Below, piece by piece: positions 16,741-61,570 of a DNA stretch of 64,000 nt. The notes under the pieces were generated by a model. It saw nothing but the letters and a program-made list of their open reading frames with translations, had not been told where the DNA came from and did not search any database. Source of the stretch: Agarophyton chilense (Eukaryota > Rhodophyta > Florideophyceae > Gracilariales > Gracilariaceae); contig JARGXX010000095.1 of the NCBI GenBank assembly GCA_030374765.1, positions 2,852,001 through 2,916,000 of the forward strand, read 5' to 3'. Each line of letters begins with the position of its first letter. Positions within the stretch are counted from its first letter, which is position 1. The position numbers were made by a program, and so were the translations under genes.

Positions 16741-17247
16741 AAGGCCTTGAAACTCTCATTCGAATCAGGCAAGCCACGTTCGTGCGGCAAGCATCGAGAA
16801 GCCAAGCAACTTTAGGTGGGAGATGCGGCGTTCTGATCGCTCAGATAGGGGTTTCGGTCGCTGCGTTGGCGCCAATTGCGACGTTTGCGTCCCGGATCAA
16901 ATGCTCTGGCGGGACCGAGCCATAACGGCTTTGCGCAAATTGAGTGAACTCAAATGTTCTGAATCACTGAATTATAGTGTACTCATTTTGCGATTTGGAA
17001 TTTCAGGAGCGACCACTGTTTTGCCACAGAAATATTCTAACAACGTCTCTATTTCTATAATTCAGCGATAAATTTTAGCACACTGGTATTCTTTTACCGT
17101 CGTAGATCAACCGTTCATCTGTCTTGCCCGGCCTGAAACGTTCAAAGCAATTGGTAGGGTCGCTCCCTATGTCTCATTTCCGTTCTCAACAGCTCCTGAG
17201 CGCAACGAGACGGGCATCTTGTGCCGAGCTCCCACGCTTTTCCCACC
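16741..17247. promoter_or_regulatory. Upstream region of the acyl-CoA synthetase gene
   Basis: There is no gene in this stretch. It should contain the promoter and 5' UTR of the gene starting at 17248. No clear TATA box or repeated motif was seen. Confidence 0.3.
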
Positions 17248-21804: not shown

Positions 21805-22439
21805 TGTCGTACAATCACCTCTGGTGTATGCTATTGTCTTGCCTCGGGAGTGTAGTGACGCTCAACCGTAGGGAGCGTGGTGACGCTCAACCTTAGAAGG
21901 TAGACGTAATAAACCTCGATGGTAACAGGGCACCGTGAAAACCCGCAGGGGCAAACGGCGGGGCAACTAGCCTATACCGTGTAGGTGAACGATGGTAGGC
22001 GTCGACGCGCGGGAAAGCCTGTGTGGTAGTTGAGAAACGATAAACCAAAAGGTATAGTCGTTACCCAAGTGGTGTCTGTCTTTATCAGATTAGGATGGGG
22101 GAGGTGCAGTTCCCTATATGCAGTGGACTGCGCTCTTCAGATCACCCGGGAGGTGCCAGCAAGGCACGGTCTCTCACCTAGTGTCAGGGACCTGGCCAAC
22201 ACTGGCTACAGTGCCAGGTGGCCACTCCACTACTGTACTAAAAATAAAAATAATTACAATTACAAGTACTAACAATTACTCAACCAGAAGGTACATTTCA
22301 ACACTACACGTGGCTGACAACACCTAGATGGTAGCTCGCCCGGAGCTGCATGGACCATGATCCCTCGCATCCATCACCTACAAGGTCAGTGTAGTATATC
22401 GACAAACTCAAAGGTCAGCCCTTCCGTCACTATACGACA
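21805..22439 (-). repeat. 3' LTR of E1
   Basis: This LTR begins TGTCGTACAATCA and ends CACTATACGACA on the plus strand. It matches 32399-33032 along its full length and the solo LTR at 14427-15060 in reverse. Confidence 0.95.
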
Positions 22440-22453
22440 GACCCCCTTCCTAC
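22440..22453 (-). promoter_or_regulatory. Polypurine tract of E1
   Basis: On the minus strand GTAGGAAGGGGGTC abuts the 3' LTR. Element E3 has the nearly identical tract AGGAAGGGGATC next to its 3' LTR. The tract primes plus-strand DNA synthesis. Confidence 0.8.
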
Positions 22454-23131
22454 CCGTGAGGCACGCCCCGTGTCTCCTTCCATCAAACCGTAGAGTTGTA
22501 GCGAGCGACAGCGGCGCGGGCATCGGAGTGGTGTCTGTGCGCGACGCGCGATCCCTTGAGGTTCAGAACTCGGCGCCAGTATCGGTTTGGGAGGGCGCGC
22601 GACGACGTCGGCGCACGAATCGAGCGACAACCATTCAGGTAGGGAATTTCATGAGGGCGATGCAGTGTAACTAGCGCGCTCGCTGACACCTTTTCGCTAG
22701 TGGCCCTGCTTGCTTGCGATTCTACTTCCGCATAGCCCACTGTCTAATCAAGTTTGTATCTCACGGTTCCCGGCTTCTCAAAATTCAGTTTTCTCCTAGG
22801 TCCCTGTGCGCGCCGTCCAGCCTGGTCGTTCCCACGGCTTGACAACCCTTCAGGTATTGCTGCCCTTAATTGGCGGCGTCGCGACCGTAACCGTGCTGTC
22901 CGGCTTTCCCTGAAGGTTTCCTGGCTTCTCGACCTTTCAGGTTTCGTCTACCTTGTAAGGATTGACTCGTGGCGCCGGTGGGGCCTGAGCCTGCGTCGAT
23001 ACAACCATTAAGGTGTTGGTCTAGGTCCGTGATGGAAGCTTCCGGTTGTGAGACCTTATTGGTGTTGAGCGGCCCCGTCGGTAGTTACGCGACCTTTTTC
23101 CGGTTTTGCATTTCGGTTTCCTTTCAAGGCA

Positions 23132-25597
23132 ATGACAGGATCGCGCCGCCTCCGCGCACGCGTTCGAACCCATTCGGTACCACGTCGGTGCACCTCGCGC
23201 CGCATCGTGGATTCGTCACCGATACCTCGAAGGGGTGGGTCGTCCCCACAAGCAGCACCAGCGCTCCAGAGACGTGAGATGCCGGTTGCCATTGAAGTTG
23301 AAGAAGTCGGCGATTCTGAGGGGATTGATACCCCTGCAGTTATGCCTTTAAGGTCGGATTGGTCCCGTTCCACAATACCTCAAAGGTCTGGACCCGATGG
23401 CGACCGCCCCTCGGCCACTATTGTACCCGAAAGGTCAGTGTCGGTACTACCGGAAAGGTTGGATCCGTTGGCCGTCTCCTCAGAACGGACCGAGGAGGCT
23501 CTACTTCAGAAGGATGAATACCCGCTTGTGTTCACCGCGGCGGTGGAGGTCGAGTCATCACCTCGTTCGTCGGGTCGAGCTACGGCCTTCCCAACCATGT
23601 CAGGTAGCGGCCCATCTCGTGTCCGTGGACGCGGTGGTATTACCAAAAGAATGACTCGCTCGACTTCGCGAACGCCTACCAACATTGGGTTTCGCAGCAT
23701 GCCTGTCCCTGCGGCTCAGTTCTCCCCTGGGACTCCGGCTGACCCGTACCAACGCAGTGGTGGACTTCCTTCGACGATTCAAACCAATTGGGCTCACAAT
23801 CTCGCGTTCGGTGCGTCGACCCGGACGACGAGTCAGAATGGACCTTTTAGTATTACCTTCGACCAGGTGACGAACAATGACCTGTTGAAGCACGATTGGT
23901 CTGTGGCGGTGGGGAATTCGTCACTGCCGGCAGCTCTTACCAGACCACAATTGGATACCTACTTGGGTTTATCCCGTTGGGACTGCGAGTGCCTTCGCTC
24001 TGTTCCATTGCTTTTGAAGAAACGGGACCAAGAGTCTCAACCTCGTCAGGGTCGACTGGAATGTTACCAGAGTCGGCACCGTCATACACCTTTGAGGTAT
24101 TTCATCTCGCCGATATATCCGAGCTACTTGCCGTATGTGCGCATCGAACCGGAGCTTGATTATTACCGTCGATTGGTGGTGCAAGTGTCCCAGTACCCGT
24201 CTATTCCGGAGACTTACCTTCCGGTGTCACCTGACTTGGTTTCCCTGAATCGGCCTTTCACCACTATCAATTGGGCTGACCGTAGTAGGTGGGGCGAGGA
24301 TGCAGCGACGGAGAGTCGCGTTCGCACTCGCAACTCTTACACTCGCGTCATGCATATGTTTCATAACGTCGAGAACTTCTCACAACCTACGAAGGGTAGA
24401 CGCGATTGGTACGAGCTTCGACCAGAGTGGTGGGAGTCCTATGAGGTTCCGTTATCGCTGCGCGTGCCCACTCCACCGGTTTTGGCGTACTTCGGGAGTC
24501 CGATTTCCCGGAACATAGAGCGGTATTACCTCATTTGGTCGTTTGCCCTCTCGGAGTGGACCGTATTGGTTGCCATCCTGGCTCTGGCGGCCGCCCGTTA
24601 CGGTATCGATTGGGGTTGTCGCAATCCCGACTCTGACACATACCGAGATGGTGTTCAACCTGTAGGTCGCATCTTCTTCATACCTCCGAGGGTTGCCTAG
24701 GATATTTCCCGATTTGGTTACGAGAACATCGTGGAGGGGACCGATTATACCGTGAAGGATTTGGACTCGTATCTCGAGCAGAGCAAGAATTACCATTGGG
24801 AATCCGATCAAGGTTGGGTGGCTTTCGATCCGGCAACTTGGGAGATAGTGCCTCGCCACGCCCAATACTATCCCGGGGAGCCTCCTGTTTATGGAGCTCC
24901 CGCGAGCCCCGAACCTTATCACGGTACTGTGGAGACACCAGTTGGTCGTTATGCTGGTCCCTTCCCGTCCGAGCCGTTACGTCAGGGTCGTAAGTCGCCT
25001 ATCCCTACGGGTGTGACTCCTACTCAACCGAACTCCTCGCGGGTTGCTGGTCCGGTTCGACCTCTGTGGGCGGGTATTGCTCGTCCTCCGCCTCAACCTA
25101 TGATGGTTTCTCCGGCCGCGGTCGGTTTGCTGGCTCAGATTCGCCAGTCTTGGGTCACCAACTTTCAGAGGGCTGGGCCTACCTACATGGTTGCTGCATT
25201 AAGGCTCCTTGAAGGTTTGCTGCCGCGCCATGCGCAATACATGAAGGCGCTGAACCAACTTGGTGAGTTCCGGAATCAGTTCCAGTTGGACATGTACCAA
25301 CTGGCCACCCGTCAGGTTGCCAATCTGGCAAGCGTCTCTGCTGCTGCGCCATCTGATCCTTTGACGGATCCCCTTCTAGGTGCTAACTTGATCCCTGTGG
25401 TTTTGCAACCCTCTCCCGCGGTTCCTTTCGTTCATCCTCTTTTGGTTTCGACTCCTCTCCCCAGTGGCGGGGCTACCGCTCCTTCCCTATCTCCTAGGTC
25501 GATGGCCCCTAGCATTTCTGCAAGTTTTTCTCCGTGGGTGGTCAATAACACGGGTCCTCCTGATTTCATTGCTCCTAAACCGACAGGTCCTTCTTAA
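23132..25597 (+). CDS. Antisense accessory ORF of E1 (opposite strand to gag-pol)
   Basis: A plus-strand frame of 822 codons runs from ATG 23132 to TAA 25595-25597, broken only by one TAG (24698-24700) with the frame continuing unchanged. The first 200 residues are Arg/Ser/Pro-rich. Residues 260-520 are Trp/Tyr-rich and include RYFISPIYP, INWADRSRWGEDAATESR, WWESYEVPLSLRVPTPPVLA and a hydrophobic segment WTVLVAILALAAARYG. After the stop NIVEGTDYTV and a Pro-rich tail with a helical segment (LAQIRQSWVTNF onward) follow. The 260-620 region is homologous to the minus-strand ORFs of E2 and E3 at the same place in those elements. It matches no family I know. Homology between diverged elements argues that the frame is or was translated. 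The single TAG suggests recent loss in this copy. The role is unknown; an envelope-like, movement or silencing-related role would be guesswork. Confidence 0.75.
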
Positions 25598-25757
25598 AGA
25601 AAATTGTTGTCTCTTCTTGTCTCCTCTACTTTTACATTTGGTTGTTCTTTCTTGTCCTCCCTTGTACGTAATCTGACACGCATATGCGTCCACCTTCTGC
25701 GGAAAACGACTTCTTTTCTCCCCCTTCCTTAGGCCTGAGTACCACGAAGGTCTAAGG

Positions 25758-26318
25758 CTAGCCGTCTGCAGGCATCGGCTCCTTGGGAAGGGGCCAATAC
25801 CTGATACGGAAGCGTGGGGGTATTATGGCTGGGGGTTCGAGGGTGTCCCCTTCTGGTCCCCAGCCGTACCACCTGACGGTGTACTTCAGACCATTGTAGG
25901 TTCGCGTGTGGCCCACCAGACGGTCAACAGGAAATTCCTCTGCGGTTTGGTCCTGATCTTTCGGGGGAACGCTACCTCGAGGGTTCATATGTTCCGAGTT
26001 GGGAGCTTCTTGTGTGGGAGCCAGGTCGGGAGCTCCCGCTGTTACCGTTTGGGGTTCAATTTTCGTCCCTGTTAGAGGGTTGTAATCCGGATCATCACGT
26101 TGACGGTCATCGTTCATCTCAATTGGGGTGGGGTCCTCCGAGGGTCGAGTGCGCAGAGCTTCAGCTCTGGGCTCTCGGGCTGAGGTGACTGCCTCAATGT
26201 GATGTTGAACCGTTTCAGGTGCTACTGTAATACGGTCCAGTGATATCATGTTCGGTATTCCATCCTGTTCAACCGTAACGGTGTGGTCTGATGCGTTCAA
26301 TACCTTATAAAGTCCCAC
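25758..26318 (-). pseudogene. E1 integrase C-terminus with chromodomain
   Basis: The frame holds the end of the integrase (HTVTVEQDGIPNMISLDRIT), an acidic linker, and a chromodomain: VDRLVGHTRTYNGLKYTVRW, then YGWGPEGDTLEPP. It ends ADG-stop. Chromodomains at the integrase end define chromoviruses and steer integration to modified histones. It lies in a different frame from the upstream integrase core, so pol is frameshifted. The plus-strand accessory ORF ends only 160 bp away, tail to tail. Confidence 0.85.
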
Positions 26319-26390
26319 TGATTTCGGTAGAAGCTTCGAATTGATATCTCTGTCAATGGCTTCATCGTCTGCTTCATCCCCCGGTCTTGG

Positions 26391-27226
26391 TCATTTACCT
26401 GAAGGTGGGTTGTCTATATAGACATATTGTCCCGAAGATACAGAGACCACTTTGGTTACCCTACGGTCGTAGTCGGCCTTGTACCGCTTCTGGGCTGCAG
26501 TGAGGCGGCTCTCTGCATGTTTGAGAGCCCTCCTCAACCTCACAAGGGTATTCCGCTTGACCTGGGCAGGGGTCAGTGCGCCAGCTGCAGTGCTGGTGGT
26601 ATGATCTCCATGGACTACAATGCCTGGGGGGTGTCGCGAAAGAACCAAATCAAAGGGAGTGGTCTGCGTTTACCGGTGTACCTGAAGGGCATAGGAGTAG
26701 GTGAGCGGTTGCACCAGCTCATCCCACCCAGTTTGGTGCTCTTCCATATAGTGTCGTAGCCTTGATACCAGTTAAAGCGCTGGACCTGTCCGTTCGTCTG
26801 CGGGTGGTAGGCAGTAGTGAAATAGTGCTTGATACCCAAGAGGTTAAAGACTGCTTCGAAGAATTTGGATGCCATGTTTGAACCATTATCGGTAAGTAGG
26901 TACAGTGGTGCACCATACGGGTAGACCCAATTGTTGATGAACGCGATCGCCAGCGTTGTTGACTTCGTATCCTTTAAAGGTATCGCTCTCGTGAGCTTCG
27001 AGAACCTGTCGGTGATCACTACAATGTGCTGATACCCGTTCTTGGTCTTGGTAAGTGGTCCTAGAAGGTCTATCGCAACAAACTGCAGCGGACCCGCTGC
27101 TGGAAACAGCTCGAGGCACTTTCGATTCTTTCGAATACCACCGCGGGTACGAACACAGGATTCGCATTGACCTACAAAGTTATAGACATCATGGGCCATA
27201 TGAGGCCAATAGAACTGTTGCCCCAA
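26391..27226 (-). pseudogene. E1 integrase core, frameshifted
   Basis: The zinc-binding HHCC region (HYPRLSGHAGATRM, then WPHMAHDVYNFVGQCESC) spans a stop near 27233. The catalytic core has AIDLLGPL (Asp), YLLTDNGSN (Asp) and NGQVQRFN, where the expected Glu is Gln, so the active site is incomplete. Near 26650-26760 the reading frame changes to a segment ending GQYVYIDNPP, the usual GPF/Y-like integrase C-terminal region. Integrase would join the cDNA to the chromosome. Confidence 0.85.
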
Positions 27227-27232
27227 GGTGTA

Positions 27233-28984
27233 TTACATTCTGGTGGCACCGGCGTGTCCCGATAGTCGCGGGTAGTGGGCGAGATACAAGACTCTCGGGC
27301 GCAGCGCCTTCGGAACCAACTTTTGAAGGCTACCATCCAAGGTTGACCTTCTCACGATGTACCCGTTGTGTTCCACATCGAATGGTGATCCTTGGAAACC
27401 AATTTGGTCAGCCAGGGTTCTGCAGTACGCATCCTGGGCCTGTTTTCGTAGAAATTCCTCTCGGGTTACGGGCATGACGTTCGTTTCCTCTAGGGTCAGT
27501 ATCTGCGTTGCCATGTCGGAGTTTCGCAAGGCACCTTCTTCAGGGACGTCCCAACATCCGTCTAGGTGTTCGCCGGTACCATTTTGGTTTGATGACACCA
27601 GAAAGCAAGGGATATCATCGTCCACCGGTTCTGTCTGTAACCCTGAGGTTTTTAAGCCTGACATAGCGTCAGCTATGTTGTGCTTGATACATGGACGGTA
27701 CTGTACGTCGTATTCAAACTCCGACAGTCTCAACCTCCAACGGACAAGTCTACCAGACGCGTCTGCGAGTCCGAGGATCCACCTTAAGGCGTCGTGGTCC
27801 GTGCTCAACGTAAAGCGCTCACCATAAAGGTATGGACGGAGCATCAACATGCTCCACACTACAGCTATACATTCCTTCTCGGTTACCGTGTAGTTCTGCT
27901 CCGCCGCATTCATAGCGCGGCTCCAGTATTCTATAGGTAATTTGTCTCCGTTGTGCTGCTCCTGCATGAGACAACACCCAATTTGGGCATAGGATGCATC
28001 TGTATCCAGCGTGTATGGTAGACCTGTTTTCGGTAACGCTAAGATTGGCGGCAACAACAGCGCTCGTTTCAATTCCTCAAAGGTGTCCATTTCTTCGTTC
28101 TATAGATTCTCAAACCGTTCAGGTTCACCTTTCTGGAGCTTCTTGTTGAGGGGAGCCGCTATTTTCGCGAATCCCTTCACGAAGCGAGGATAGACGTTAC
28201 ATAAACCTATAAAGGATCGTACGTCTTTCTGGGATCGTGGCAACTTGACCTCCTGTACGCCTCTAATGTTGCTCGGCGCAACCTCTAGGGTACCAGGGCC
28301 TATGATGTGGCCCAGGTATTCAACCGTTCTGGTAAAGAAGACGCATTTGCGTAGCTTCAGCGTCACTCCCGCCTCAGCTAGGAAGGTTAGTACGGTGCGT
28401 ACGTGTGCAAAATGCTCTTCTACCGATCTGGAATAGATGATTACATCATCGATGTATACCAAGGCGGTTGTCCATTTAACCTTCGAAAGGATGATGTCCT
28501 GCGCTCTTTGAAAGGTGGCTGGAGCATTGCGCAACCCGAAAGGCATCCGCGTGAAGCGAAAAAGACCTGCATGGCACGTGAAGGTGGTTTTGTCTCGATC
28601 TTCCTCACCTACGGGTACCTGCCAATAACCACACTTGGCATCCAACGTGGTAAATATCTGCGCATCTCCCAAGGAGTCGATGCACTCATCCATTCTAGGT
28701 ATCGGGTACGAATCCCTGACGGTCACACTATTGAGCCTCCTGTAGTCCACACAGAACCTCATACGGTTATCTCCTTTCTTCTGAACCAGAACCACGGGAC
28801 TAGCCCAATCTGAGTTGGCTGGTTCAATTACCCCTTCTTGGAGCATTCGCTCCACTTCTTTGAGTTCTATTTCTCTCGCCTTCGGACCTGCACGGTATGG
28901 TTGCTGGTAAATCGGCTTCGAGTCAGGGAGGAGCTCGATGCGATGCTGTGTGGCCTTAATTTGGCCCAGATGGCCTGACCACAT
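27233..28984 (-). pseudogene. E1 reverse transcriptase-RNase H
   Basis: The RT has DWASPVVLVQKKGDNRMRFC, FTTLDAKCGYWQVP (first Asp), MPFGLRNAPATFQ and the intact YIDDVIIYS box, then GLCNVYPRFVKGFAKIAAPL. An in-frame stop at about 28100 separates it from the RNase H, which keeps LDTDASYAQIGCC, TEKECIAVVWS and STDHDALRW. All RT catalytic Asp residues and the RNase H acidic residues are present. These enzymes make cDNA in the particle. Confidence 0.92.
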
Positions 28985-29062
28985 GGTTTAGAACTCCTAC
29001 AGAAGGTCGATAATACGGCCCCACCGTTGGCCGTTTTCTTCACCAATCTGGACTATATGTTG

Positions 29063-30228: not shown

Positions 30229-31938
30229 TTAATTAGCGCAGTTGTTTGCCAAATGGTCTGTCGTGAGACAGAACCAGCAAACGAAGATTCCAGTGTGGGG
30301 GTCTCGCGTTACCATTGAGGGGGTCTTCGAAACTTGGTTGGTGAGAGTAATGGCGTAGGATGTGGGTGGCGAGTTATGGGAGCTTGCTCCCGGCATCCTA
30401 TGCAAGCTCACCGAACTTGGCGGCGATTGTACCGAGTTTGATGTACGCGTTGGCGACCAATTTTCTAGCGTCGAAGGTTTCGAGAATTGCCCCTGCGTCG
30501 ATACCAAGTTGATAGCGGTTCCTGTAGGTATTTCGATGTGCAAGCTACCCTCTGAGGTTGTGGTGTCTTCAATTTCCAAGACAGACCTTTTCGATTTATC
30601 CTTCGAGGCTGGAGGCACGGCTGGTCTCTTTCCCAGCCGAAGGGTATCTCCAAGGCCCTGGGAGTATCGAGCCAGCCCATTGTAGTCTACCTTTCGGTTG
30701 GTGGCCAGGTAGTTGCGTATATGGGAATGGATTGCTTTTTCGACATTGTCGGCAAATAGCGACTTTAACCTAGAGGTAGTGAACACATTACCACAACGGG
30801 TTGCCAGATTCCAAAGCGCGAGCGATAACTCCGGTTCGGTTTGCCCAGACCTTTGATGGTAAGCGAGGACTTACGAGTAAGCCTCTTGGATAACGTCATC
30901 GGTGGCGTATGTTTTCAAAAGGAAATTGACCACTTCTGGGTATGATTCCAACATCTCTGTGCCCTCCTCATCCATCGCTAAGGTATTGCCGCGGAGCCTA
31001 CCCTGCAGCAAGTAGTATGCTTGTCCTTTAAGGCAAAACTCAAATAGCCACATAGCAGCGCCCTCGGGAAAACCATTTTGGGCACATGCAAGCTTGAAAT
31101 TCTGTAGAAACTCAATCACCGCAATAGGATCCATACCTGTGAAGGTTGTGTCACCCATTTGGAATCTGAGCTTCTTGTGGTTCTTAGTAATCTTCTGAAC
31201 CATATCTTGAGTGTATACAGACGACTTGTTGATCAACCGATAGTTCCTGTAATCAACCGCTTTGGTGAACATATCGTTCGACGGTTGGTGCACCTCCAGG
31301 TCCATTTCGGTGTCCGACTCAGAGTCGGGCGACTCATTGTATCGCTTTTTACCCTTTCGGTTCTTTTCTGAGGACTTCTTCGTCGACCTGTTCTGTTTCT
31401 TCTTCTTCTTACCTTTACGGTCATCATCCGACGATGAACTCGTATCGGAACTGGAGTCCGACGAGTCGGGGCCTGAATCATTCTCTCGATTCTTTCCCCT
31501 CTTCATCCTCTTCTTCTTACCTTTTCGGTTTCTTCGTCGCTCATCCAACGAGTCAGACGAATCGTTTTTGGGACCACCTCCATGGGTATCCTTTTGAACG
31601 AAACCAGTAATTGGTGGCAGATAAATTTCTTGAGGATCTGCCTTCCCCTGGACGTCTTGACTCTGCGGTGAACCTTGTAGGTACTCACTATCAGTAGGTA
31701 AGTGTTTGGAATGGGTGGAATGACCCATTTGGAACCCTTGTGGTCTGCGCTTTGCGATGTTCACCTGTGTAGGTCGGGTTTCTGCGAATCACTCGGAAAC
31801 CCAAAGGTCTTGCACCTCGCGGTAAACAAGCTCCCTAGCATCTGTAAAGAGATACTGTTTCACCATTTCAGGTATCCTGTCCAATAGCTCTTGAGCTGCT
31901 CGGTCAACCACAATACGGGTAAATGCATCGACGTCCAT
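30229..31938 (-). pseudogene. E1 gag with zinc knuckle
   Basis: The frame from about 31938 encodes the capsid-type region VDAFTRIVVDRAAQELLDRI, a highly basic and Ser/Asp-rich linker (GKKKRMKRGK, SSDTSSSSDDD), the core FTGMDPIAVIEFLQNFKLAC, then AAMWLFEF and SYPEVVNFLLKTYAT. It ends in a CCHC knuckle CWFCLTTDHLANNC near 30240. In-frame stops lie near 31787 (TGA) and at 30871-30873 (TAA). Gag packages the element RNA. Confidence 0.85.
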
Positions 31939-32395: not shown

Positions 32396-32398
32396 ACA

Positions 32399-33032
32399 TG
32401 TCGTACAATCAACTCTGGGGTATGCTACTGTCTGGTTTCGGGAGCGTGGTGACGCTCAACCGTAGGGAGCGTGGTGACGCTCAACCTTAGAAGGTAGACG
32501 TAATAAACCTCGATGGTAACAGGGCACCGTGAAAACCCGCAGGGGCAAACGGCGGGGCGACTAGCCTATACCGTGTAGGTGAACGATGGTAGGCGTCGAC
32601 GCGCGGGAAAGCCTGTGTGGTAGTTGAGAAACGATGAACCAAAAGGTATAGTCGTTACCCAAGTGGTGTCTGTCTTTATCAGATTAGGATGGGGGAGGTG
32701 CAGTTCCCTATATGCAGTGGACTGCACTCTTCAGATCACCCGGGAGGTGCCAGCAAGGCACGGTCTCTCACCTAGTGTCAGGGACCTGGCCAACACTGGC
32801 TACAGTGCCAGGTGGTCACGCCACTACTGTACTAAAATAAAAATAATTACAATTACAAGTACTAACAATTACTCAACCAGAAGGTACATTTCAACACTAC
32901 ACGTGGCTGACAACACGAAGATGGTAGCTCGCCCGGAGCTGCATGGCCCATGATCCCTCGCATCCATCACCTACAAGGTCAGTGTAGTATATTGACAATC
33001 TCAAAGGTCAGCCCTTCCGCCACTATACGAAA
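32399..33032 (-). repeat. 5' LTR of E1
   Basis: This copy matches the left LTR from TGTCGTACAATCA onward. Its outer end reads TATACGAAA where the family has TATACGACA, a one-base change. ATAGC follows directly. Confidence 0.95.
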
Positions 33033-42842: not shown

Positions 42843-43288
42843 TGTGAAGGAGCAGCGATAACGGTTGAGCATCGTGAGCCGCCAGGTCCCGGGGTATCTT
42901 ACAGATGCCACATGGACTGGTTGACCTCAGCTGGACTCATTTAGATAATTATTTTATTTTAATTAGTGTAATACATTAGCATTACCATGCTAGAGATATC
43001 CCAGTGCCTCACCATTGCTACTTGATTGGCTCGAGTGACGCTTTTTCTTAAGAATAAGGTAGGCACCGTTAGGATACTAAATTACCCCCTTCGGTATATT
43101 AGTTGCAACAATTGGTCTTCAAGCCATCGTTTCCGTAGCTCTGACCTGCACGACTACGCAGTAAACGCCAGCCCACTGCCTCAAGTACTCTGGGAACGCC
43201 GCCGTCAAGTACTCAAACCTTTGGACCCGCTCTACCACGCTACTACCGGTCGAGACCCGCACGCTGACCCACTAGTCATTGCGTTACA
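42843..43288 (+). repeat. 5' LTR of E2
   Basis: It starts TGTGAAGGAGCAGCG and ends TTGCGTTACA. It is related to the copies at 323-767, 3316-3761 and 52567-53007. GTTAGGATACTAAATTACC near 43071 is shared by the family. Confidence 0.9.
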
Positions 43289-46213: not shown

Positions 46214-47913
46214 ATGGACATCCACCCCAACAGGCCGTTCTTGGTCACAATCAGCCACTTCAGAGATACACCCGTACTGTTACCAAAAGGTACAGTGATT
46301 GGCATCACTCTAAATGCGCCAGTGGCCATTATGGAGGCCCGAATATATAACTTTGCAACGCCAACTCCCAACGAGCACGTCGAATCTTGGGGGGGGGGAC
46401 AGTCGCTATCGGCGCAGAACTCGAATCCTACAGACCCCAGGGAGTTGATCTCCTCAGGGACTACCAGGCCATGTGGTGCGGTAGATTGGGCAAAATTAGA
46501 GCCATTGCACACGGAATTGACATTCAAAAGGATGGCAGACCACAGTTCCAGCACCCATACCGCCGATCAGATGGACAAGATGCGCAAAGCTCAACTCATG
46601 AAAACCGGCGCCTCCAAACCAATCCGAATGGGCAAGTCCCCTTGTCCTCGTGGCGAAGAAAGACGGCTCCGTCAGGTTCTGTGTCGACTACAGGAAGCTT
46701 AACGAAGTAACCAAGAGGAACTAATACCCGATATACCGTATGGATAACTGTTTAGATTCCTTAGGTGAAGCTGCCGTATTTCCTACACTGGACGCTAACT
46801 CCGGATATTGGCAAATCTATTTGGCCGAAGATGCGAGAACGCTGACAACCTTCACCTCCCATGAAGGTCTGTTCATATTTACTCGTATGCCCATTGGTTT
46901 AAAGAATGGACCAGCACCCTTCCAACAGATAATGGACATCATACTGTCCAGAGTCAAATGGAAGTTCGCCCTGGTCTATTTGGATGACGTAATAATCTTC
47001 TCACGGACCGTAAAGGGACACCTTCGCCACGTGACGACGGTACTAACAATGCTACAGGACGCTGGGGTAACATTGAAACTCCGCAAATGCGCCTTCTTCC
47101 AGGCCTCGGTGGACTATCACAGTCACGTCGTGCTCCCAGGAAAGCTAAAATTAGCCATACGGACACCGAATGCGATCTTCCAGGCTAGAACTCCCAGAAC
47201 CCACACGGAACTACGGTCCTTCGTGGGATTGTGATATGTTTACCGACGTTTCTTCCAAGGGTTTGCTAAAATCTCGGCCCCCCTCAACGCAATTCTGAAG
47301 AAAAGAACGCCTTTGGAGTTCGAGGCCCTTACCGACGACCAGTACGAGGCATTACAGACCCTAAAGGACCAACTACTGAACCCATCTATACTGGCTTTAC
47401 CAAAACCCAATAGGCCCTTTCTCCTGGACAAATATGTCTCTGATGTCCAAGTGGGATGTGCACTGCTACAGGAACAGGGGTCACCGAAGAACTCTCGATT
47501 TATTGCATATTGGAGCAGAACGCTCACCAGCGCGAAGCGCAACTAAAGTACCACCGACAATAAACGTGTAGCCATCGTATGCTCCGTATTGACATTTTGT
47601 CCATACATCGAGGGAACTAGGTTTACCACTAGGACAGACAACGATTCACTCCGCTGATTACTCAATATAACCGATTCATCAAGTCGCCTTGCTCGTTGGC
47701 GCCGTAGGCTGTCAGAGTATGACTACGATATATCCTATAATCCAGTCATCAAGCATCAGGCAGCAGATGCCCTCTCGCGAATCATTACCGACGGAACTGA
47801 TGACACGCCATTGGACGACCTCCTCCCTACCTCCTTCACAGATGATGGAACTCAGGGTTGTACGGAAACGGATTTTCTTATGGGTAAGGTCAAAGCGGAT
47901 GATCCGGAGGTAA
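46214..47913 (+). pseudogene. E2 reverse transcriptase-RNase H
   Basis: MWCGRLGKIRAIAHGIDI and HPYRRS open the RT in one frame; after frame changes come [14 protein letters not shown] in a neighbouring frame, then PTLDANSGYWQIYLAED, MPIGLKNGPAPFQQIM, YLDDVIIFSRTVKG (intact box near 46979) and TELRSFVGL. TGA 47232, TAA 47544 and others interrupt. RNase H keeps LDKYVSDVQVGCALLQ, a stop, then RVAIVCSVLTFCPY and TRTDNDSLR. Catalytic RT residues are present but the frame is not. Confidence 0.88.
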
Positions 47914-49240: not shown

Positions 49241-49372
49241 GCCCCCAGCTCTTCCGAATGACCAAATTCCAAGCCTCCTGGCCCAACGAAATCCCTACGA
49301 GCTCAGATCGACGCTCAAGTCGCCACAACCCCTAAGGCAGTTTCCGCAGACCCGACTAGCCCCAGAGACCCG

Positions 49373-49768
49373 ATGGTCAATGCCAATGACGATGAACTAT
49401 CTCTTCCAAGCAACTCCGATGCATTCGCCCCTCTGGAGCACGCTCTCCTTCCGGGGAATGAACACCAACCGGAATACCTGACTGAGCGCATCATCTCCGC
49501 CAGTCAGGGAGAAGATGGAACTATGCGCTACGGCGTCCGTTGGTTCGGCTACATACCTGAGAAAGACACTTGGCAAGAGCCTCAAGCCATAGCAGCTAGT
49601 TTTATTGCGCGCCATTGGCGCAAAATCGGCATCACGGAGCGCAGCCTTCAGGAGAGGGCAACCGTTGGCCCGAATAATACCAAAACTCCTTTCGAAACGC
49701 CTCCCGACACGACGGTCCGCCATAGCGCCCGCATGAGGGACCAGAGACAGTCCTCCGGCGCGACCTGA
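49373..49768 (+). pseudogene. E2 chromodomain tail
   Basis: An acidic linker is followed by EYLTERIISASQGEDGTMRY, GVRWFGYIPEKDTWQEPQAI and ARHWRK, a chromodomain, then a short Thr/Arg-rich end and TGA. The reading frame is uninterrupted for 131 codons. The antisense ORF ends 176 bp further, tail to tail. Confidence 0.85.
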
Positions 49769-49944: not shown

Positions 49945-51474
49945 TCACCGGAGAGGCGCAGGAGTAACTCCATCGTTTTCATTGGAACGTAGAGGAGCGA
50001 AACCGGGACTAGGGTCACCCGAGGAGCCTACTGTACCAATGAAAGCAGCCCCAGCGAGCGGCGCACGCTTCTTCGGCGGAGATTCACCTGAGAAACTATT
50101 TTCACCCTCGGAAGCCTTCCGGTCGCTCACATTTAGACCATTACGGGCATCCAAGTCTGCAGTAACCCTCTGGGACATCATTCGTGCATTCTGGTGAAGG
50201 AGATTGGCCATAGCGGTCTCCAGATCTTGACCTTGTTTGACAATCGAGGCGTCAGGCGCTGAGCGACGCACCCATGAGCAGGCTTCCCTCAGAAATGTCG
50301 CAATTTCTATCGAGGCAGTATTACCAAGGGCACGGCAGACATGAACGAAATCCGCGGCTGGAGCCGTGATCGAATCGGAAAAATGCGGCAACGGAGAAAA
50401 TGGCGCGATATCGACGCCTACAGTGGACGTCTGAACCATCGGGTCACCTGCAGGACCAACCCGTTCGACAGTAACGTCTCCAGGAGGGATGTCCAATTGG
50501 GCCACGGGCGGCTCATATGAGAGTTCATCCTGAGGATCAGCGCCAGGAGGAGCTGGAAAAGGGGAGGCCGTCGGCAACACAACAGCGGACTCGACCGAAT
50601 GATTGACGCCCTCCACGGGTAGGACGAAGCGATCATCACCGAAGGAATCTCCATCGGACAAACCAGCAGGAACCAACGGCGTCTCTTCCAAGTCAGGCTC
50701 AAAGCACAGGGAATCGTAACCAACGGCATTTGGGTAATATTCAGGTACATGACGCCTCGAAATGTTCGATGGTTGATTCCTCAAGGGTTTGGTGGGATAG
50801 GCATGAGTTTCAACCTGACCCTGCAGATGTAGCATACTCGGCGTGAGGGAGTCGGTATCGTAGTCATACCAAAGGGAACCGGGAGTCTTGCTCCACTCCA
50901 CCTGTAGGACATAATCCAAAAGAGCCTCGGCCTCCTCGACGGCCACCTTGGTCCCACGTACGATATTCTGGATGCACAGGTTCCTTAGCAAACGGATCAT
51001 GATGTCCAGGAGCGGAATTAGACGACCTAGAGAACCGGGTATGTTCTCGTCGTGGCATACCCTCCCATTATTCGAACGGACATTACCACGCACTCCGTAC
51101 TTCGCAGTATCCAGGAAGGCCATAAGGGACATCACGCCGAATTCAACGAAGAGTACCTTCCAGGACAACCAGGACCTTCGGTCACAGTCGTCGCCCAAGA
51201 GTTGGGATGAATGATACGCCACTACGAACGGCGTGGGAACCAAAAGGAGCAGCGAGATACTCCAGTACATGGCCCATTGGTTCTCATCAACGTGGGGAAG
51301 CGAGAGATATAACGGAGGACGTTTGCCTGCGCTCAAGTCGTGAAACTCCACCTTGTGCCAACAGAAGAAGAACTCTAGAGATTCACGTAAACGACCATCG
51401 GGCTCAAGCATCTCGTTCCAATAGAGCCTATTGGACATCCAAAACAGGCGGTCATACGACGGACGGAAGCACAT
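49945..51474 (-). CDS. Antisense accessory ORF of E2
   Basis: This is a 509-codon uninterrupted minus-strand frame, ATG at 51472-51474 (in-frame codons extend upstream to a TAG near 51515). It includes YDRLFWMSNRLYWNEM, NQWAMYWSISLLLLVPTPFV followed by VAYHSS, a second hydrophobic stretch (VLFVEFGVMSLMAFL), CIQNIVRGTKVAVEEAEALL, LWYDYDTDSLTP, a Pro-rich middle and a helical C-terminal region (FLREACSWVRRSAPDA, ending KKRAPLAG). It is homologous to the plus-strand ORF of minus-strand element E1 and to the E3 minus ORF: same motif order, same spot between chromodomain and 3' LTR. That it is open while E2 gag-pol is full of stops suggests stronger constraint or chance. Family and function unknown. 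Confidence 0.75.
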   Translation of the reverse strand: MCFRPSYDRLFWMSNRLYWNEMLEPDGRLRESLEFFFCWHKVEFHDLSAGKRPPLYLSLPHVDENQWAMYWSISLLLLVPTPFVVAYHSSQLLGDDCDRRSWLSWKVLFVEFGVMSLMAFLDTAKYGVRGNVRSNNGRVCHDENIPGSLGRLIPLLDIMIRLLRNLCIQNIVRGTKVAVEEAEALLDYVLQVEWSKTPGSLWYDYDTDSLTPSMLHLQGQVETHAYPTKPLRNQPSNISRRHVPEYYPNAVGYDSLCFEPDLEETPLVPAGLSDGDSFGDDRFVLPVEGVNHSVESAVVLPTASPFPAPPGADPQDELSYEPPVAQLDIPPGDVTVERVGPAGDPMVQTSTVGVDIAPFSPLPHFSDSITAPAADFVHVCRALGNTASIEIATFLREACSWVRRSAPDASIVKQGQDLETAMANLLHQNARMMSQRVTADLDARNGLNVSDRKASEGENSFSGESPPKKRAPLAGAAFIGTVGSSGDPSPGFAPLRSNENDGVTPAPLR

Positions 51475-51483
51475 GAGCGCCAA

Positions 51484-52553
51484 GAGGTTTTGACCCGCCG
51501 GAGGAAATCTCTTCCTCTATAGAGGAAAAATAAAATTCGTCAAGAAGTCCCCTCAAAATCGTAGGACAGAAGGGTGATTCCTATAGATTAGTTATATTCC
51601 TATAGATTAGGTCTCACATGAGGCGAGATGAAGTCCGCCTATAGGTTCGAAAGGAGTTTGTTCACCCTGAACTGGTACACGGATTCCTCCTCGCAGCGAA
51701 TGTACGGCATTTCTGCTTGAATTAGGGTGCGACAGCGCGTCGTCGAACGCGGATCCACAAGACAATGAATGCAACGGTTATACCATGAGACGCTGCGAGC
51801 GTTCTTCCTGCCCCTCCGGAGATCGGGTACCTTACCGAGCCTCCGGGCGTCGAGATACATATGACAGGACCTTTTGCATTCTTCCACAGAGAACGAAAGA
51901 ATGGCATGACTCCCTGCCTGCGGATTTCGTCCGGTGGTATGGCCATAGCGGTCTTCGTGACGCTTATAAGTCACTTGGTATCCCGAGGAGCTCCTCACTT
52001 GGTTGCTCGAGCCATGGTGCCGCTGCCCACAGGCTGGTCCGCCAGGAAATGGATAGGAAAACCGACGGAAGCGACAAAGTTCGGATGGAAAATAGCGTAT
52101 TCGACGGGCTTATAAGGTGAGTTCTGCATCGCGCGCGACGAATGGAAAAGTTCCACGATGGGAAGAAGAAATGACGGAATTGACCCGAGCGGACTGACAG
52201 ACGTACACCGCGGTGGACGAAGCGCAGAGGGTTTCCAAAGGAAAAGCGGAGACTAAGGAAGGCCGCAATGATCGTCAGGGGAGAAGAAGCCAAGGAACCA
52301 TCTCACCAACGCGAAACGAGGAATATGCTGGCGATGCACCTATGGCCAGCGCTCACAGGGCACTTGAGTTTCACTCCTTAAGCAAATTAATTGCCACCCC
52401 GGCGCCAATAGTCAGCTCACACTTCCCCGTAGCCCCGCAGGTGATGAAGACGGGACGTCCCGTCGCGCTCAATGGTAATGGGAGCGATTAAGCGCTCACG
52501 TCCCGTGGATCGATCATGAGGCTATCTGGACTTCTATGTGACGATCGAATCCT
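51484..52553 (-). pseudogene. Decayed upstream part of the E2 antisense gene
   Basis: Minus-strand frames 51639-51998 and 51964-52293 lie upstream of the intact frame. By position they correspond to the first 250-300 residues of the E1 antisense protein. Pieces such as MPYIRCEEESVYQFRV are compatible with it but alignment by eye is weak. Confidence 0.35.
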
Positions 52554-52566: not shown

Positions 52567-53007
52567 TATAAAAAAGCAACGATAACGAATGAGTTTTGTG
52601 AGCCACCGGGGCCTGAGGTATCTTACAGACGCCACGTGGACTGGCAGACCTCAGCTGGACTCATTTAGATAATTATTATTTTTTAATTAGTGTATTAGAT
52701 TAGCATCACAGTGTCAGGGAGATCCCAGCGCCTCTCCATTGCTATTTACTTGGCTCAAGTGACTCTTTTTCCTTAGAGTAAGGGAGGCACCGTTACGATA
52801 CTAAATTACCCCCTTTGGTACATTAGTTCCACCAATTGGTCTTCAAGCCATTTTCTCCGTAGCTCCGACCGCTAGGACTTCGCAGTAAACGCCAACCCAT
52901 TACACCAAGTATTCTGGGAGTGCCGCCGTCTACGAGCCTTAGGACCCGCTCTACCACGCTACCTCAAGTTGAGACCAGTACCCTGACCCACCCTTCATTG
53001 CGTTACG
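52567..53007 (+). repeat. 3' LTR of E2
   Basis: This is the same family as 42843-43288. Its first bases TATAAAAAAGCAACG show G-to-A changes against TGTGAAGGAGCAGCG, and the end reads GCGTTACG. It is followed by AGT and then AGTAT, the target duplication. Confidence 0.88.
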
Positions 53008-57351: not shown

Positions 57352-57427
57352 CTTGTTCCGCGGCCAAGTGGCCCATTCGTATCACAGACAGCGACACACA
57401 CACACACAAACATGTGCTTTAGTACTC

Positions 57428-58508: not shown

Positions 58509-59222
58509 TGGGCACACCGTCACGGTTAGAATGGATGGACTCGAAAACACCGTATCCGTAGACAAGGTCTCCATAGACCCTAGTAAAGGGCGTACTACGG
58601 CGCCCAGTGGTCCCCGGGGTGGCCCTGAGGGCATCCAAGCTGATCCTGAACCACCATCTGGATCATTGACTGGAGCAACTCGAACTGCCCTAGTTCCCTC
58701 TCTAATACTTCACCAATTACAGCAAGGTATAAGTTAAGTTACAGCGAACCCAACCGTTGGAACGACCCCCTCTGAACTGGAGTCAATTTCACGGAGTAGT
58801 ACGAGAAGCGTTCAATGGCAAGACCTGGAGGACACTCCCGACCCTACCACAACCAAAAGAGCCCAAGAGCAGGGCTCCATACCTCAATTAGGCGGGCAGT
58901 CTGAGGTCCCGGCCTTCGAATGCGCGATCAGCACCATTGTAGGTCACAAACAAATGCCAGGAGGCCTTCCTTACTCCGTACGGTCGTATGGCTATGGCCC
59001 TGGAGATGTTACATTGGAACCTCCTAACCATATACAACACAACTTCAGAATACGGTACCGGCATAGCCGCAACGAACTCCTGGCAACCGATGGATAAAGA
59101 CATAAACAGGTGCTGTCCACAAAAGAAGGGAAGGGGAGACATTGGATTCGCGATCGCTCGGTGCGAAAAACAGTGAAATGCTATAGTCAAGAAGAGATCA
59201 CAAGTCCATTGCAAGCCACATT
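58509..59222 (+). pseudogene. E3 integrase C-terminus and chromodomain remnant
   Basis: HTVTVRMDGLENTVSVDKVS aligns with E1 HTVTVEQDGIPNMISLDRIT. After a stop, a linker leads to FECAISTIVGHKQMPGGLPY and SVRSYGYGPGDVTLEPPNHI with FRIRYRHSRNELLATDG, aligned with E1 KYTVRWYGWGPEGDTLEPP and FRIRYW. Two stops interrupt. Confidence 0.8.
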
Positions 59223-59373: not shown

Positions 59374-61570
59374 TCAGAGGCAACGGCGGCAGAACTGAAG
59401 AGGTACCCGAGTGAAAGGAGGAGCAGGGAAAGAAGAAGAGCCAGCCATGGGCATCGGCACGCTACCCACAGGGTAATTGTAGGCGAAAGCCAACAAAGAA
59501 CAAACAGTGGTGGCCATGAGGGGATCGTTCGAAATGTTTGCTTGCTCCATAATGATGATGAGATCCGCGGCGTGATGGGTAACCGCCTGGTACATCACGG
59601 CCTGAAACAGAATATAGAAGGCAAACGCCTGGTTGTTTGCGGCTATATTGTCGGCGTGACCAGGAATGAGCTGCTCCAGGAGCGCCAGAGCTTCCTAGAG
59701 AAAATGCGGACCGGAACGGTTGAAACGAGAGACATACACGCGCTGGATCTTCATAAGCGCACTTCTGATGGCTGGACTCGTAACAGGCTCACCACAGCCA
59801 GCTGTGGTAAGATTAACCATGAGGGCTTGTCAAGGCCCAGAAGAAAGAGCAGGAACCGAACGGGGAACACAGGAAACGCGGATAGAAGAAAGACAATTGG
59901 AACCAGCAGGTGCGGGGGTCGTAGTGACGGGGGTAATACCTTCCGGAGTCTCCACCTCATGAGTAAAAGGCTGAGGGGATCCACCAGTGGGTTCCTCGCC
60001 TGGCGATAACCGATTTGGACTACTTGGGAATGATAACTTCTCGAATTCCCAAACCTCCCAACATTGGTCATCTTCCCACGGATGCGACAGCGACACCTTT
60101 AGGTAAGTCTCAAGCTGAGAAACGGTGTATTCTGTACCGAAGAGAATATCATCCATACCAATCTGGCGGATGAGATCCACTGTGGTGCGAGGAAGCCGAA
60201 AGATACGACCAGTAGGTGAGAAATCATAATTGTTGATCCGAGGGTCGGAGCGATGGCTGTCCCCGGTGATACCGTCGCGGGAAGCTTTCACGGCTAGAAG
60301 AGGAACGAAAACGGCCCTCCCTGTGAGAGCTACAGACTGAATGGTGTGATAGTACCTCTTGTTTCGGTCGCAATGGCTGCCGAAGTATGCCCTCACGAGA
60401 GGAGTCGGAACGCCCAACCATTGCGGTACCTCGTAGTCCGACCACCATGCAAGACGGGTAACATACCATTTGCGGAAATTCTTCGTTGATTGAGAAAAGA
60501 ACTCAGTGCAATGGAAACCATGCATGGTATGGCCTAGAGTAGAATATTCCGACAGCAGATCTGGACCTCGGTGGTAGCGTCCCCACCCCAACGGTCACGA
60601 TCCAACCAATGCTTGGTGTAGAATGATGAGTTGAACACCACCATTTCCGGGTCGAGCTTAAGCCACTTCGTCGATGGACCGAGACGGTGCAATAATACCA
60701 CAAAAATACGAAAGTAATAGAACTCATCGATACACCGCAGATAGAGTAGGTCGCTCGGAATGGTGTTAGGAATGAAAAACCGAAAAGATGAGTGATGCTT
60801 ACGCTTTTGAAAGCAGGTCTGTCTTCCTGGACGGAAACGATTCTCCCTTGACGGTATTGGTGGAGCTAATGGCACGGCGCCAATATGATGGCTGTCTCAA
60901 CGACTCTATGATGCATAACCCGAAAGGGTGGGATGCTTAAACTGCGAACCCAACCCAGCGGTGTTAATAGGGACAGACCAAGAGGTGGCCTCCAAGTGCA
61001 GCGCATTGAGCTTCTTCGGGAACAGACGATAAGGGTTAAGGGTTGCAGATAGGTTGCTGACCAAGTACGGATCGTAATGCCCGGAACTGGAAGGGAAATA
61101 AAACGTCCCAACAAGGATTGGTGATAAGGATGAAACCGGAGCGGTAACTGACTGGTCACGACCACGACCCCAAGAGCGGGAGCGGGTCAGAGACTTCCAG
61201 ATACGACGGCTGCGGTTCGCACCACGAGTAATCTTACCAGAAATGCTAGCCAACAGTGATGAAGAGGTAGACCAACGAGGTATTGCCTCGGAGCCATGGT
61301 CTTTATACCCATCGACGGTAGGCTCTCGCGTCTGCTGTAAACCATGACGTTCGTGTAATGTGTCCTCGGAGATGCTCGAATTCTCCGTTGATTGAGCGGG
61401 AAAGAACCGAAGGGGCACCACCGACACGGAAACCACACCGGTAATTGGGATCGACAAACGGCGAGATCCACCACTGTGCTCTGTTGAAATTTCGACAGAC
61501 AAGCGATTTCCACAAGGAGGTTTCGGGGAATTTGTGAGCGTCGCGACGAGTGAAATTCAACCGGCACTAG
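59374..61570 (-). pseudogene. Antisense accessory gene of E3, frameshifted
   Basis: Minus-strand frame 60534-60875 has KRKHHSSFRFFIPNTIPS, DPEMVVFNSSFYTKHWLDRD and RWGGDATTE, aligning with E1 SRHRHTPLRYFISPIYPS, SPDLVSLNRPFTTINWADRS and RWGEDAATE. After a shift, 59830-60591 has AWWSDYEVPQWLGVPTPLVR, AYFGS, YYHTIQSVALTGRAVFVPLL, PTGRIFRLPRTTVDLIRQIG, DILFGTEYTV and HPWEDDQCWEVWEFEKL, aligning with the E1 ORF over more than 150 residues. Upstream frames to 61570 probably hold the N-terminus. It is clearly the same gene as in E1, degraded by shifts and stops. Confidence 0.78.

What the first reader, a model, noticed from the sequence alone, without database searches (positions are those of the whole stretch)
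23132..25597. Conserved antisense gene family in gypsy chromoviruses
Three very diverged gypsy elements (E1, E2, E3) each carry a long ORF on the strand opposite to gag-pol, between the chromodomain and the 3' LTR. The proteins are homologous: VPTPPVLAYFGS (E1, about 24463-24500), VPTPFVVAYHSS (E2, minus, about 51204-51239), VPTPLVRAYFGS (E3, minus, about 60378-60414); later NIVEGTDYTV, NIVRGTKVAV and DILFGTEYTV, with conserved Trp/Tyr and a hydrophobic segment between. Antisense ORFs between pol and the 3' LTR are known from some plant Ty3/gypsy lineages; I know of no description of this protein family. Keeping a homologous antisense protein while LTRs diverge beyond recognition implies a selected function.
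Basis: partly seen in the sequence, partly recalled or inferred. Interest (0 to 1): 0.88.

Follow-up and report, generated by a model that had tools for sequence, protein, structure and literature searches.

The report
Antisense gene in red-algal retrotransposons
Three related jumping genes in a red seaweed genome each carry, on the opposite strand to their usual genes, a further protein gene of a family I could not match to any described one, and natural selection has kept it working in the lineages that spread; antisense genes of other protein types are known from plant and fungal jumping genes.

Summary
E1, E2 and E3 carry homologous protein-coding sequence antisense to pol, just beyond its integrase/chromodomain end (BLASTP E1-E3 5e-26, E1-E2 1e-13, E2-E3 1e-8; hhalign 8e-53, 3e-12, 1e-6). 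The E1 window copy has one internal stop and E3 is in pieces; some other E1 copies have the whole ~840-codon frame open. The genome (79.8 Mb; probably Gracilaria chilensis) holds at least 80 E1-type, 82 E2-type and 56 E3-type places. Variants shared by three or more copies are depleted of amino-acid changes and, in E1 and E2, contain no stops: E1 p=1e-4, E2 p=5e-18; E3 is weaker. So the lineages that spread were under purifying selection in this frame. A 62%-identical protein from an unnamed transcript assembly shows the family elsewhere. No Pfam, NCBIfam or credible PDB relative was found. Antisense accessory ORFs at this place are known in plant Grande/Retand and in fungal Boty; this is another protein family in another phylum. 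Best guess: a nuclear regulatory accessory protein from the element's own antisense unit. Function, and antisense transcription in this genome, are inferred.

The parts
21805..22440 (-). E1 3' LTR (element reads on the - strand)
   Evidence: direct repeat of 32398-33030, 96.8% identical
22800..23131 (+). conserved stretch upstream of the E1 antisense start codon; candidate antisense promoter/5' leader (inferred)
   Evidence: shared-variant density falls from 0.46-0.66 (LTR and first ~360 internal bases) to 0.04-0.13 at about 22800 and stays low into the ORF
23132..25597 (+). E1 antisense gene; one internal stop at 24698-24700 in this copy
   Evidence: some other copies hold the whole frame open
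23894..24900 (+). E1 central conserved region (includes VPTPPVLAYFGS at 24464); limits approximate
   Evidence: aligned in the three families; shared variants 24 N/25 S against private 350 N/152 S, p=0.006
25598..25757 (.). 160-base gap between the antisense stop and the stop of the chromodomain-bearing pol frame (tail to tail)
   Evidence: ORF ends; sequence printed
25758..26390 (-). E1 end of pol with chromodomain-like match
   Evidence: Pfam Chromo 17.7 bits, below cut-off 25.1
26615..27232 (-). E1 integrase core
   Evidence: rve 5.1e-13
27233..28099 (-). E1 RNase H and start of the integrase zinc-binding part
   Evidence: RT_RNaseH 1e-33
28100..28987 (-). E1 reverse transcriptase
   Evidence: RVT_1 2.5e-34
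30871..31788 (-). E1 first long ORF, gag position (no gag family hit)
   Evidence: 37% over 132 aa to E2 44262-44654
32398..33030 (-). E1 5' LTR
42843..43288 (+). E2 5' LTR
   Evidence: 82% identical to 52575-53006
46725..47234 (+). E2 reverse transcriptase piece
   Evidence: RVT_1 2.8e-25; 57-58% identical to E1
49262..49768 (+). E2 end of pol with chromodomain-like match
   Evidence: Pfam Chromo 19.7 bits, below cut-off 25.1
49945..51516 (-). E2 antisense gene, 523 codons; ends 176 bases from the stop of the chromodomain-bearing frame
51642..52109 (-). E2 antisense gene, N-terminal piece
   Evidence: A2 profile 4.8e-11, A4 profile 3.5e-35
52567..53006 (+). E2 3' LTR
58513..59094 (+). E3 end of pol (chromodomain region); rest of its pol not found
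   Evidence: 30% over 194 aa to E1, 2.8e-15
59377..59694 (-). E3 antisense gene, C-terminal piece
   Evidence: A1 profile 6e-8
59833..60594 (-). E3 antisense gene, central piece, 254 codons
60537..60896 (-). E3 antisense gene, upstream piece
   Evidence: A1 profile 2e-22

Best explanation
A clade of chromodomain-type Ty3/gypsy elements in a gracilarialean red alga carries a third gene, antisense and tail-to-tail to pol, between pol and the 3' LTR. SHOWN: it encodes one homologous protein family; it is a standing part of two multi-copy element families and of a third, decayed one; its frame was under purifying selection in the E1 and E2 lineages that spread. INFERRED: it is transcribed towards pol from the element's own antisense promoter, in or next to the conserved 330 bases upstream of the start codon or in the LTR; the protein enters the nucleus (PKKR near the C-terminus of all six E2 proteins aligned, PKKRARL in four; E1 has pI 8.9) and acts in trans on the element's own expression, silencing or nuclear steps, working like the antisense accessory proteins of Grande and Retand and the antisense regulator of HTLV. 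Probabilities: selected antisense accessory protein about 0.95; nuclear regulator given that, about 0.5.
For: Homology of all three pairs. Copies: 80 E1-type places scored of 1256 first-look candidates, 82 E2-type rows of 1168, 56 E3-type places at 46% identity or more, window included. Selection: E1, 29 copies, private variants 884 N/364 S/58 stops, variants in three or more copies 87 N/71 S/0 stops, p=1.1e-4; the five other frames give odds ratios 0.89-1.36 (p>=0.10) and 7-12 stops in that class; the known sense pol end as positive control 1.97, p=0.04; leader 0.97. E2, 12 copies, private 509 N/203 S/13 stops, three or more 47 N/97 S/0 stops, codon positions 33/16/95, p=4.9e-18. Between families first and second codon positions are 42-60% identical, third 29-38%, against 25-28% expected from composition. 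Placement: of 16 antisense copies (8 E1, 8 E2) with a listed integrase match within 8 kb, 12 lie antisense and downstream of it at narrow distances. A 263-aa protein labelled TRINITY from EukProt is 62% identical over 262 aa; no match to it in this genome exceeds 67% (63% over its full length), so it is from another genome. K638-K639-R640 of L069 are invariant in the six aligned E2 proteins. The A. chilense gene model P0002 joins a first part encoded across the LTR/leader border to the antisense ORF, as a spliced antisense transcript would; whether RNA supports that model is unknown to me.
Against: No antisense RNA of this genome was examined. P0003 comes from a transcript assembly whose strand and species I do not know; genomic contamination is possible. 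A hydrophobic 19-mer in the central region (mean hydropathy 2.09, 2.05, 1.82 and 1.51 in E1, P0003, E2 and E3 window) would also suit a membrane protein. The basic cluster is clear only in E2. In E1, variants in exactly two copies are 232 N/109 S/14 stops, near the private pattern, and if they are added to the shared class the true frame gives 1.37 (p=0.006) but a +1 control frame 1.34 (p=0.013); the E1 contrast therefore rests on variants in three or more copies. In E3 the shared class holds 12 stops and two control frames also shift (p=0.003 and 0.0025); one of these shares its third codon positions with the true frame, the other does not.
Confidence: 0.5

Rival explanations
1. The antisense protein is an envelope-like or membrane protein: the conserved hydrophobic stretch is a membrane segment and the protein serves movement or membrane targeting of particles.
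For: Hydrophobic 19-mers of mean hydropathy 2.09 (E1), 2.05 (P0003) and 1.82 (E2) at the same place in the central region.
Against: No strongly hydrophobic N-terminal segment: maximum -0.10 in E1, 0.49 in P0003, 0.55 in E2; the stretch holds an acidic residue in E1, E2 and P0003 (SEW, VEF, TEW) and falls to 1.51 in the E3 window copy. Env-like ORFs of plant elements are described as sense ORFs (PMC7264820 passages).
Confidence: 0.12
2. What matters is the antisense RNA (dsRNA/siRNA or interference with the sense RNA); the open frame is incidental.
For: Antisense non-coding transcripts of other elements, and dsRNA-based control, are discussed in PMC7264820 (passages).
Against: Selection is on the protein: variants in three or more copies are depleted of amino-acid changes and stops in the true frame, and the protein is recognisable between families whose third codon positions are at 29-38% identity. 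An RNA role in addition is not excluded.
Confidence: 0.05
3. A captured host gene or separate nested mobile element carried along without function.
For: No homologue outside such copies was found, apart from P0003 of unknown setting, so the origin is open.
Against: Present in three families in the same orientation next to the pol end; purifying selection; distances from integrase nearly constant, 2.88-3.07 kb in 7 of 8 E1 cases and 2.16-2.22 kb in 5 of 8 E2 cases with a listed integrase within 8 kb. Origin by old capture remains possible.
Confidence: 0.05
4. An accessory protein of another kind: restriction of the element's own copy number, packaging or particle assembly, or integration-site choice, in cytoplasm or nucleus.
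For: Not excluded by any search; E1 and E3 also share the C-terminal region (380 aligned columns).
Against: No positive evidence.
Confidence: 0.28

Closest known systems
Antisense accessory ORFs (aORF-3R) of plant gypsy elements: Grande gene23, RIRE2, Retand (Transposase_28/TRP28)
   Same: Between pol and 3' LTR, antisense to gag-pol, kept in many copies and across elements of several species; Grande's protein is nuclear and transcribed from a promoter upstream of it; 97% of Retand clusters encode the TRP28 domain antisense (PMC7264820, PMC11963269; passages read).
   Different: Different host phylum; chromodomain-type elements, whereas Retand is a non-chromovirus lineage; no Pfam hit of any kind in four proteins, and Transposase_28 gives nothing over its cut-off in this genome.
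Boty of Botrytis cinerea with antisense gene brtn
   Same: A gag-pol element whose protein has gag, RT, IN and CHROMO domains and an added gene, brtn (PMC4227169 passage); PMC7264820 (passage) lists Boty as a non-plant case of an antisense ORF between pol and 3' LTR.
   Different: Fungus; the brtn sequence was not at hand, so homology was not tested.
Antisense retroviral genes (HBZ of HTLV-1)
   Same: Antisense gene, nuclear protein with a role in the virus life cycle (as described in PMC11963269 and PMC7264820 passages).
   Different: Analogy only; no sequence comparison was made.
Red-algal gypsy elements in general
   Same: Chromoviruses are stated to occur in red algae (PMC3605345, abstract passage).
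   Different: PMC12502185 holds the words antisense, LTR and gypsy nowhere in its main text; PMC10388701 has no 'LTR' and I did not search it for 'antisense'.

Membership tests
Antisense accessory ORF of an LTR retrotransposon (functional class) | ORF antisense to gag-pol, between pol and 3' LTR | tested here: met
   E1 and E2 inside LTR pairs; E3 antisense to its pol end, LTR pair not found
Antisense accessory ORF of an LTR retrotransposon (functional class) | present in many copies and several families, not one transduced copy | tested here: met
   at least 80, 82 and 56 places; the share of element copies that lack it was not measured
Antisense accessory ORF of an LTR retrotransposon (functional class) | coding constraint | tested here: met
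   weak in E3
Antisense accessory ORF of an LTR retrotransposon (functional class) | antisense transcript | not testable with these tools
   only indirect: P0003 from a transcript assembly and the gene model P0002
Transposase_28 / TRP28 proteins (PF04195) | match to PF04195 | tested here: not met
   no Pfam family reported for four proteins at a limit of E=10 (HMMER's filters drop most matches above 0.1); genome search gave one place, 20.2 bits against cut-off 26.2
Chromovirus clade of Ty3/gypsy | chromodomain at the C-terminus of integrase | tested here: inconclusive
   17.7 and 19.7 bits against cut-off 25.1
Chromovirus clade of Ty3/gypsy | gypsy order RT-RNaseH-integrase | tested here: met
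   E1
brtn (Boty) | sequence homology to brtn | not tested
   sequence not at hand
Grande gene23-like nuclear proteins | nuclear localisation and own promoter | not testable with these tools
   E2 basic stretch and conserved upstream region are hints only

The most novel reading that the evidence does not exclude
An undescribed protein family, perhaps with an undescribed fold, is a standing third gene of a red-algal chromovirus clade and acts in trans as the element's own transcriptional or anti-silencing regulator, expressed from a dedicated antisense promoter: an independent origin, in a further major eukaryotic group, of the antisense-regulator plan known or suspected in plant gypsy elements, Boty and HTLV.
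Probability: 0.35. Interest if true: 0.7.

Novelty: new variant of a known kind. Interest (0 to 1): 0.52.

Why it matters
Antisense genes between pol and the 3' LTR have been described from flowering-plant gypsy elements, a fungal chromodomain element and some retroviruses, mostly with unknown function (PMC7264820, passages). A case in red algae, with copy-level evidence for protein selection, makes it more likely that the place and orientation themselves are useful to an LTR element. With more than 200 places listed in an 80 Mb genome and copies whose frame is open, expression and localisation are testable. The method used, contrasting private with shared variants among copies, separates selection from decay after insertion and could be applied to the plant and fungal cases.

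Tried and rejected
A fourth antisense gene: ORF 38169-38981 (-), downstream of a fourth gypsy remnant (integrase at 36396-36854), looked like one. It belongs to a family with 144 matches, many with 640-650 aa open frames, lies on the strand of and just downstream of a Plavaka transposase remnant and has no consistent place relative to integrases (136 of 144 rows compared; 5 lay within 10 kb of a listed integrase, in mixed arrangements); rejected as part of this finding.

A hit of the E1 profile at 22318-22671 (+) (9.4e-9) is explained: that profile includes the A. chilense gene model P0002, whose first ~75 residues correspond to this stretch; it is not a second copy of the gene.

Solved-structure matches (166 at E up to 10, best 0.064, the 60 shown mostly antibody chains; 4, best 0.31) are judged compositional or chance. 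The IMG/VR scan confirmed no relative (82 stretches matched a pattern, none passed tblastn). Rfam: none in the window. Structure prediction was off, so no fold search.

Relatives elsewhere: three protein searches found five Agarophyton chilense predictions and one transcript-derived protein. Each scored only the 8000 candidates sharing most words.

Limits of the counts: genome searches score only the best candidates. The five fetched E2 copies of the first E2 test had been chosen for being stop-free (these and the window copy, p=8e-7), which biases stop counts; six more, all with stops, were then added (12 copies). Those six plus the window copy alone: 15 N/21 S shared against 348 N/199 S private, p=0.012. 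L032 was dropped from the E1 test as 99.8% identical to L026; only 30 of the 80 E1 places had been fetched. In one search I entered 80 E1 rows, 77 of 82 E2 rows (five similar rows on small contigs left out) and 150 integrase rows; only 8 E1 and 8 E2 copies had a listed integrase within 8 kb, and 4 of these 16 did not show the expected arrangement (perhaps neighbouring elements). The joint alignments A4 and A5 hold 3 E1, 5 E2 and 4 E3 sequences, a part of what was held. I could not test what share of all gypsy families carry the gene.
Full report
WHAT WAS CHECKED. The window lies in G000:C95:2852001-2916000 of a 79.76 Mb genome in 135 contigs. The only named relatives of the antisense protein are Agarophyton chilense predictions. 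Gracilaria chilensis was assembled with PacBio into 138 contigs and 76.07 Mb (PMC10388701, passages read), so the host is probably that species or a near relative; this is inference, and that the two names mean one species is recalled.

ANATOMY. E1 reads on the minus strand between LTRs at 32398-33030 and 21805-22440, 96.8% identical: reverse transcriptase, RNase H, integrase and a chromodomain-like end (Chromo 17.7 bits, below the 25.1 cut-off) follow each other in several broken frames. The antisense frame 23132-25597 (+) ends 160 bases from the stop of the chromodomain-bearing frame. E2 reads on the plus strand between LTRs at 42843-43288 and 52567-53006; its antisense frame ends at 49945, 176 bases from the stop ending at 49768. 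For E3 I found only the end of pol (58513-59094) and antisense pieces. In all three the antisense gene is tail-to-tail with pol. A fourth gypsy remnant (35191-37342) gives no match to the antisense profiles (open frames of 40 aa or more scanned). E1 and E2 reverse transcriptases are 58% identical over 240 aa while the antisense proteins are 24% identical over 244 aa, so the antisense protein has diverged much more than RT.

HOMOLOGY. BLASTP and profile comparisons are significant for all pairs (the profiles hold 6, 6 and 4 sequences, the E1 one including the A. chilense prediction P0002). The common part is a central region of about 250-320 residues, with VPTP.V.AY, a hydrophobic stretch and a later NIV.GT/DIL.GT segment; E1 and E3 align further into the C-terminal region (380 columns). 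Scanning the open frames of the window with five profiles hit the three antisense genes and one more frame, 22318-22671 (+) (9.4e-9, E1 profile only); one search shows that this stretch corresponds to the first ~75 residues of P0002, that is, the A. chilense gene model starts across the LTR/leader border and is joined to the antisense ORF. Between families, nucleotide identity at codon positions 1, 2 and 3 is 0.46/0.51/0.31 (E1-E2, 257 codons), 0.53/0.60/0.38 (E1-E3, 216) and 0.42/0.51/0.29 (E2-E3, 195), with 0.25-0.28 expected from composition: third positions are near saturation while the protein is kept.

COPIES. E1-type: 81 matches at 80 places, 79-100% identity. With P0003 as query 145 rows are listed, 143 of them at 52% or more. 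E2-type: 82 rows, 64-71% apart from the window copy itself. E3-type: 57 listed rows at 56 places with 46% or more, window included; the same search then lists E1-type places at 36-43% with E from 3e-43, which confirms the E1-E3 link without any profile. Some copies have the whole frame open (839 to 876 codons with no stop inside the match); most rows carry one to several stops. Identical or near-identical rows on small contigs may be redundant assembly.

SELECTION. Variants among copies were split into private (one copy, mostly after insertion) and shared (three or more copies, mostly before). E1, 29 copies (30 fetched, one near-duplicate dropped): private N/S 2.43 with 58 stops, shared 1.23 with none, p=1.1e-4; the other five frames give odds ratios 0.89-1.36 (p>=0.10) and 7-12 shared stops; the end of pol, a known sense gene, shows the same shift (1.97, p=0.04); the leader does not (0.97). 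By part: N-terminal p=0.016, central p=0.006, C-terminal p=0.13. Against this: variants in exactly two copies are 232 N/109 S/14 stops, close to private ones, and when they are added the true frame gives 1.37 (p=0.006) while one control frame gives 1.34 (p=0.013). The first, simpler count by codon position gave private 359/363/391 and shared 51/47/76 (30 copies). E2, 12 copies: private 509 N/203 S/13 stops, shared 47 N/97 S/0 stops, codon positions 33/16/95, p=4.9e-18; the shift in one minus-strand frame (3.37, p=1.6e-10) is the shadow of the same third positions; three other control frames shift the opposite way and the fifth not significantly. Five of the twelve had been chosen as stop-free; the window copy with the other six gives p=0.012. 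E3, 30 copies: p=5.4e-5, but with 12 stops among shared variants and with two control frames also shifted (p=0.003, 0.0025), so weak. Median pairwise dN/dS is 0.40 in E2 (range 0.27-0.66) and 0.61 in E1.

A SHARP BORDER. In E1 the density of shared variants is 0.46-0.66 in the LTR and the first 360 internal bases, falls to 0.09 at about 22800, stays at 0.01-0.13 to the end of the antisense gene and is 0.09-0.17 over the pol end. About 330 bases upstream of the antisense start codon are thus as conserved as the gene. I read this as the gene's promoter and leader, by analogy with Grande, whose antisense gene is transcribed from a promoter upstream of it (PMC7264820, passages). A sense-strand signal there, or recombination among LTR types, is an alternative. 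Private variants are nearly as dense in the gene as upstream of it (0.41-0.52 against 0.44-0.67), as expected if they arose after insertion.

PROTEIN. No family in Pfam or NCBIfam; PDB matches are judged chance; structure prediction was off. E1 (L037, 821 aa from the first Met) has pI 8.9 and a hydrophobic 19-mer of mean 2.09; E2 (L069, 678 aa) has pI 5.7 and a basic stretch near its end: PKKR in six of six aligned E2 proteins, PKKRARL in four; the A. chilense prediction P0005 carries a like stretch. P0003, 263 aa, is the central region alone, with a Met start. That the basic stretch is a nuclear signal is my reading from general knowledge.

MECHANISM. The simplest account is an accessory protein expressed from the element's own antisense unit and selected for a role in the element's life cycle. 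A nuclear regulatory role is favoured by analogy with Grande's nuclear protein and Retand's TRP28 proteins, predicted to bind DNA (PMC7264820, PMC11963269, passages), and by the basic stretch in E2; nothing here shows it.

COMPARISON WITH WHAT IS KNOWN. The kind of gene is known: antisense ORFs between pol and the 3' LTR in plants and in Boty (PMC7264820 passages); Boty's gag-pol product includes a CHROMO domain (PMC4227169 passage), so a chromodomain element with an antisense gene has a precedent. The Boty paper itself (Zhao et al. 2011) was seen only as a reference. TRP28 membership was tested and not met. I found no description of this family: eight answered paper searches, read as listings, with passages of seven papers. 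Absence in these searches does not prove absence in print.

VERDICT. A real, selected antisense gene family; new protein family in a known kind of arrangement; function open.

Noticed in passing
38169-38981 (-) and 39495-41657 (-); 54106-56847 (+): Plavaka transposase remnants; the ORF at 38169-38981 just downstream belongs to a family with 144 matches, many with 640-650 aa open frames, possibly a second Plavaka-associated gene.
   Followed up: partly
35191-37342 (+): Fourth gypsy remnant (RNase H, weak integrase), about 38% identical to E1, with no match to the antisense profiles.
   Followed up: partly
14426-15061; 323-768; 3316-3761: Single LTR-like stretches of E1 type (90-91% identical) and E2 type (76-81%) without a recognised element of their own.
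   Followed up: no
22318-22671 (+): Stretch across the E1 LTR/leader border that corresponds to the first ~75 residues of the A. chilense gene model P0002, which joins it to the antisense ORF; a hint of a spliced antisense transcript if the model rests on RNA.
   Followed up: partly
21805-22800: E1 LTR and the first 360 internal bases are far more variable among copies than the neighbouring part of the element, with a sharp border near 22800.
   Followed up: partly
57419-57639: Imperfect palindrome, arms of 91 bases 88% complementary, with further repeats around.
   Followed up: no
6134-7012 (+) and 5089-5796 (+): DDE_Tnp_4 transposase piece next to a gypsy RT piece.
   Followed up: no
9885-10505 (+) and 17200-19131 (+): Host genes: phosphoglucose isomerase piece and an AMP-binding enzyme.
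   Followed up: no
G000:C13:7956, C109:949263, C110:16030 and C110:51422: Four E1-type antisense copies with identical scores, suggesting recent segmental duplication or redundant assembly; five E2-type copies on contigs C40, C46, C47, C54, C55 look alike too.
   Followed up: no
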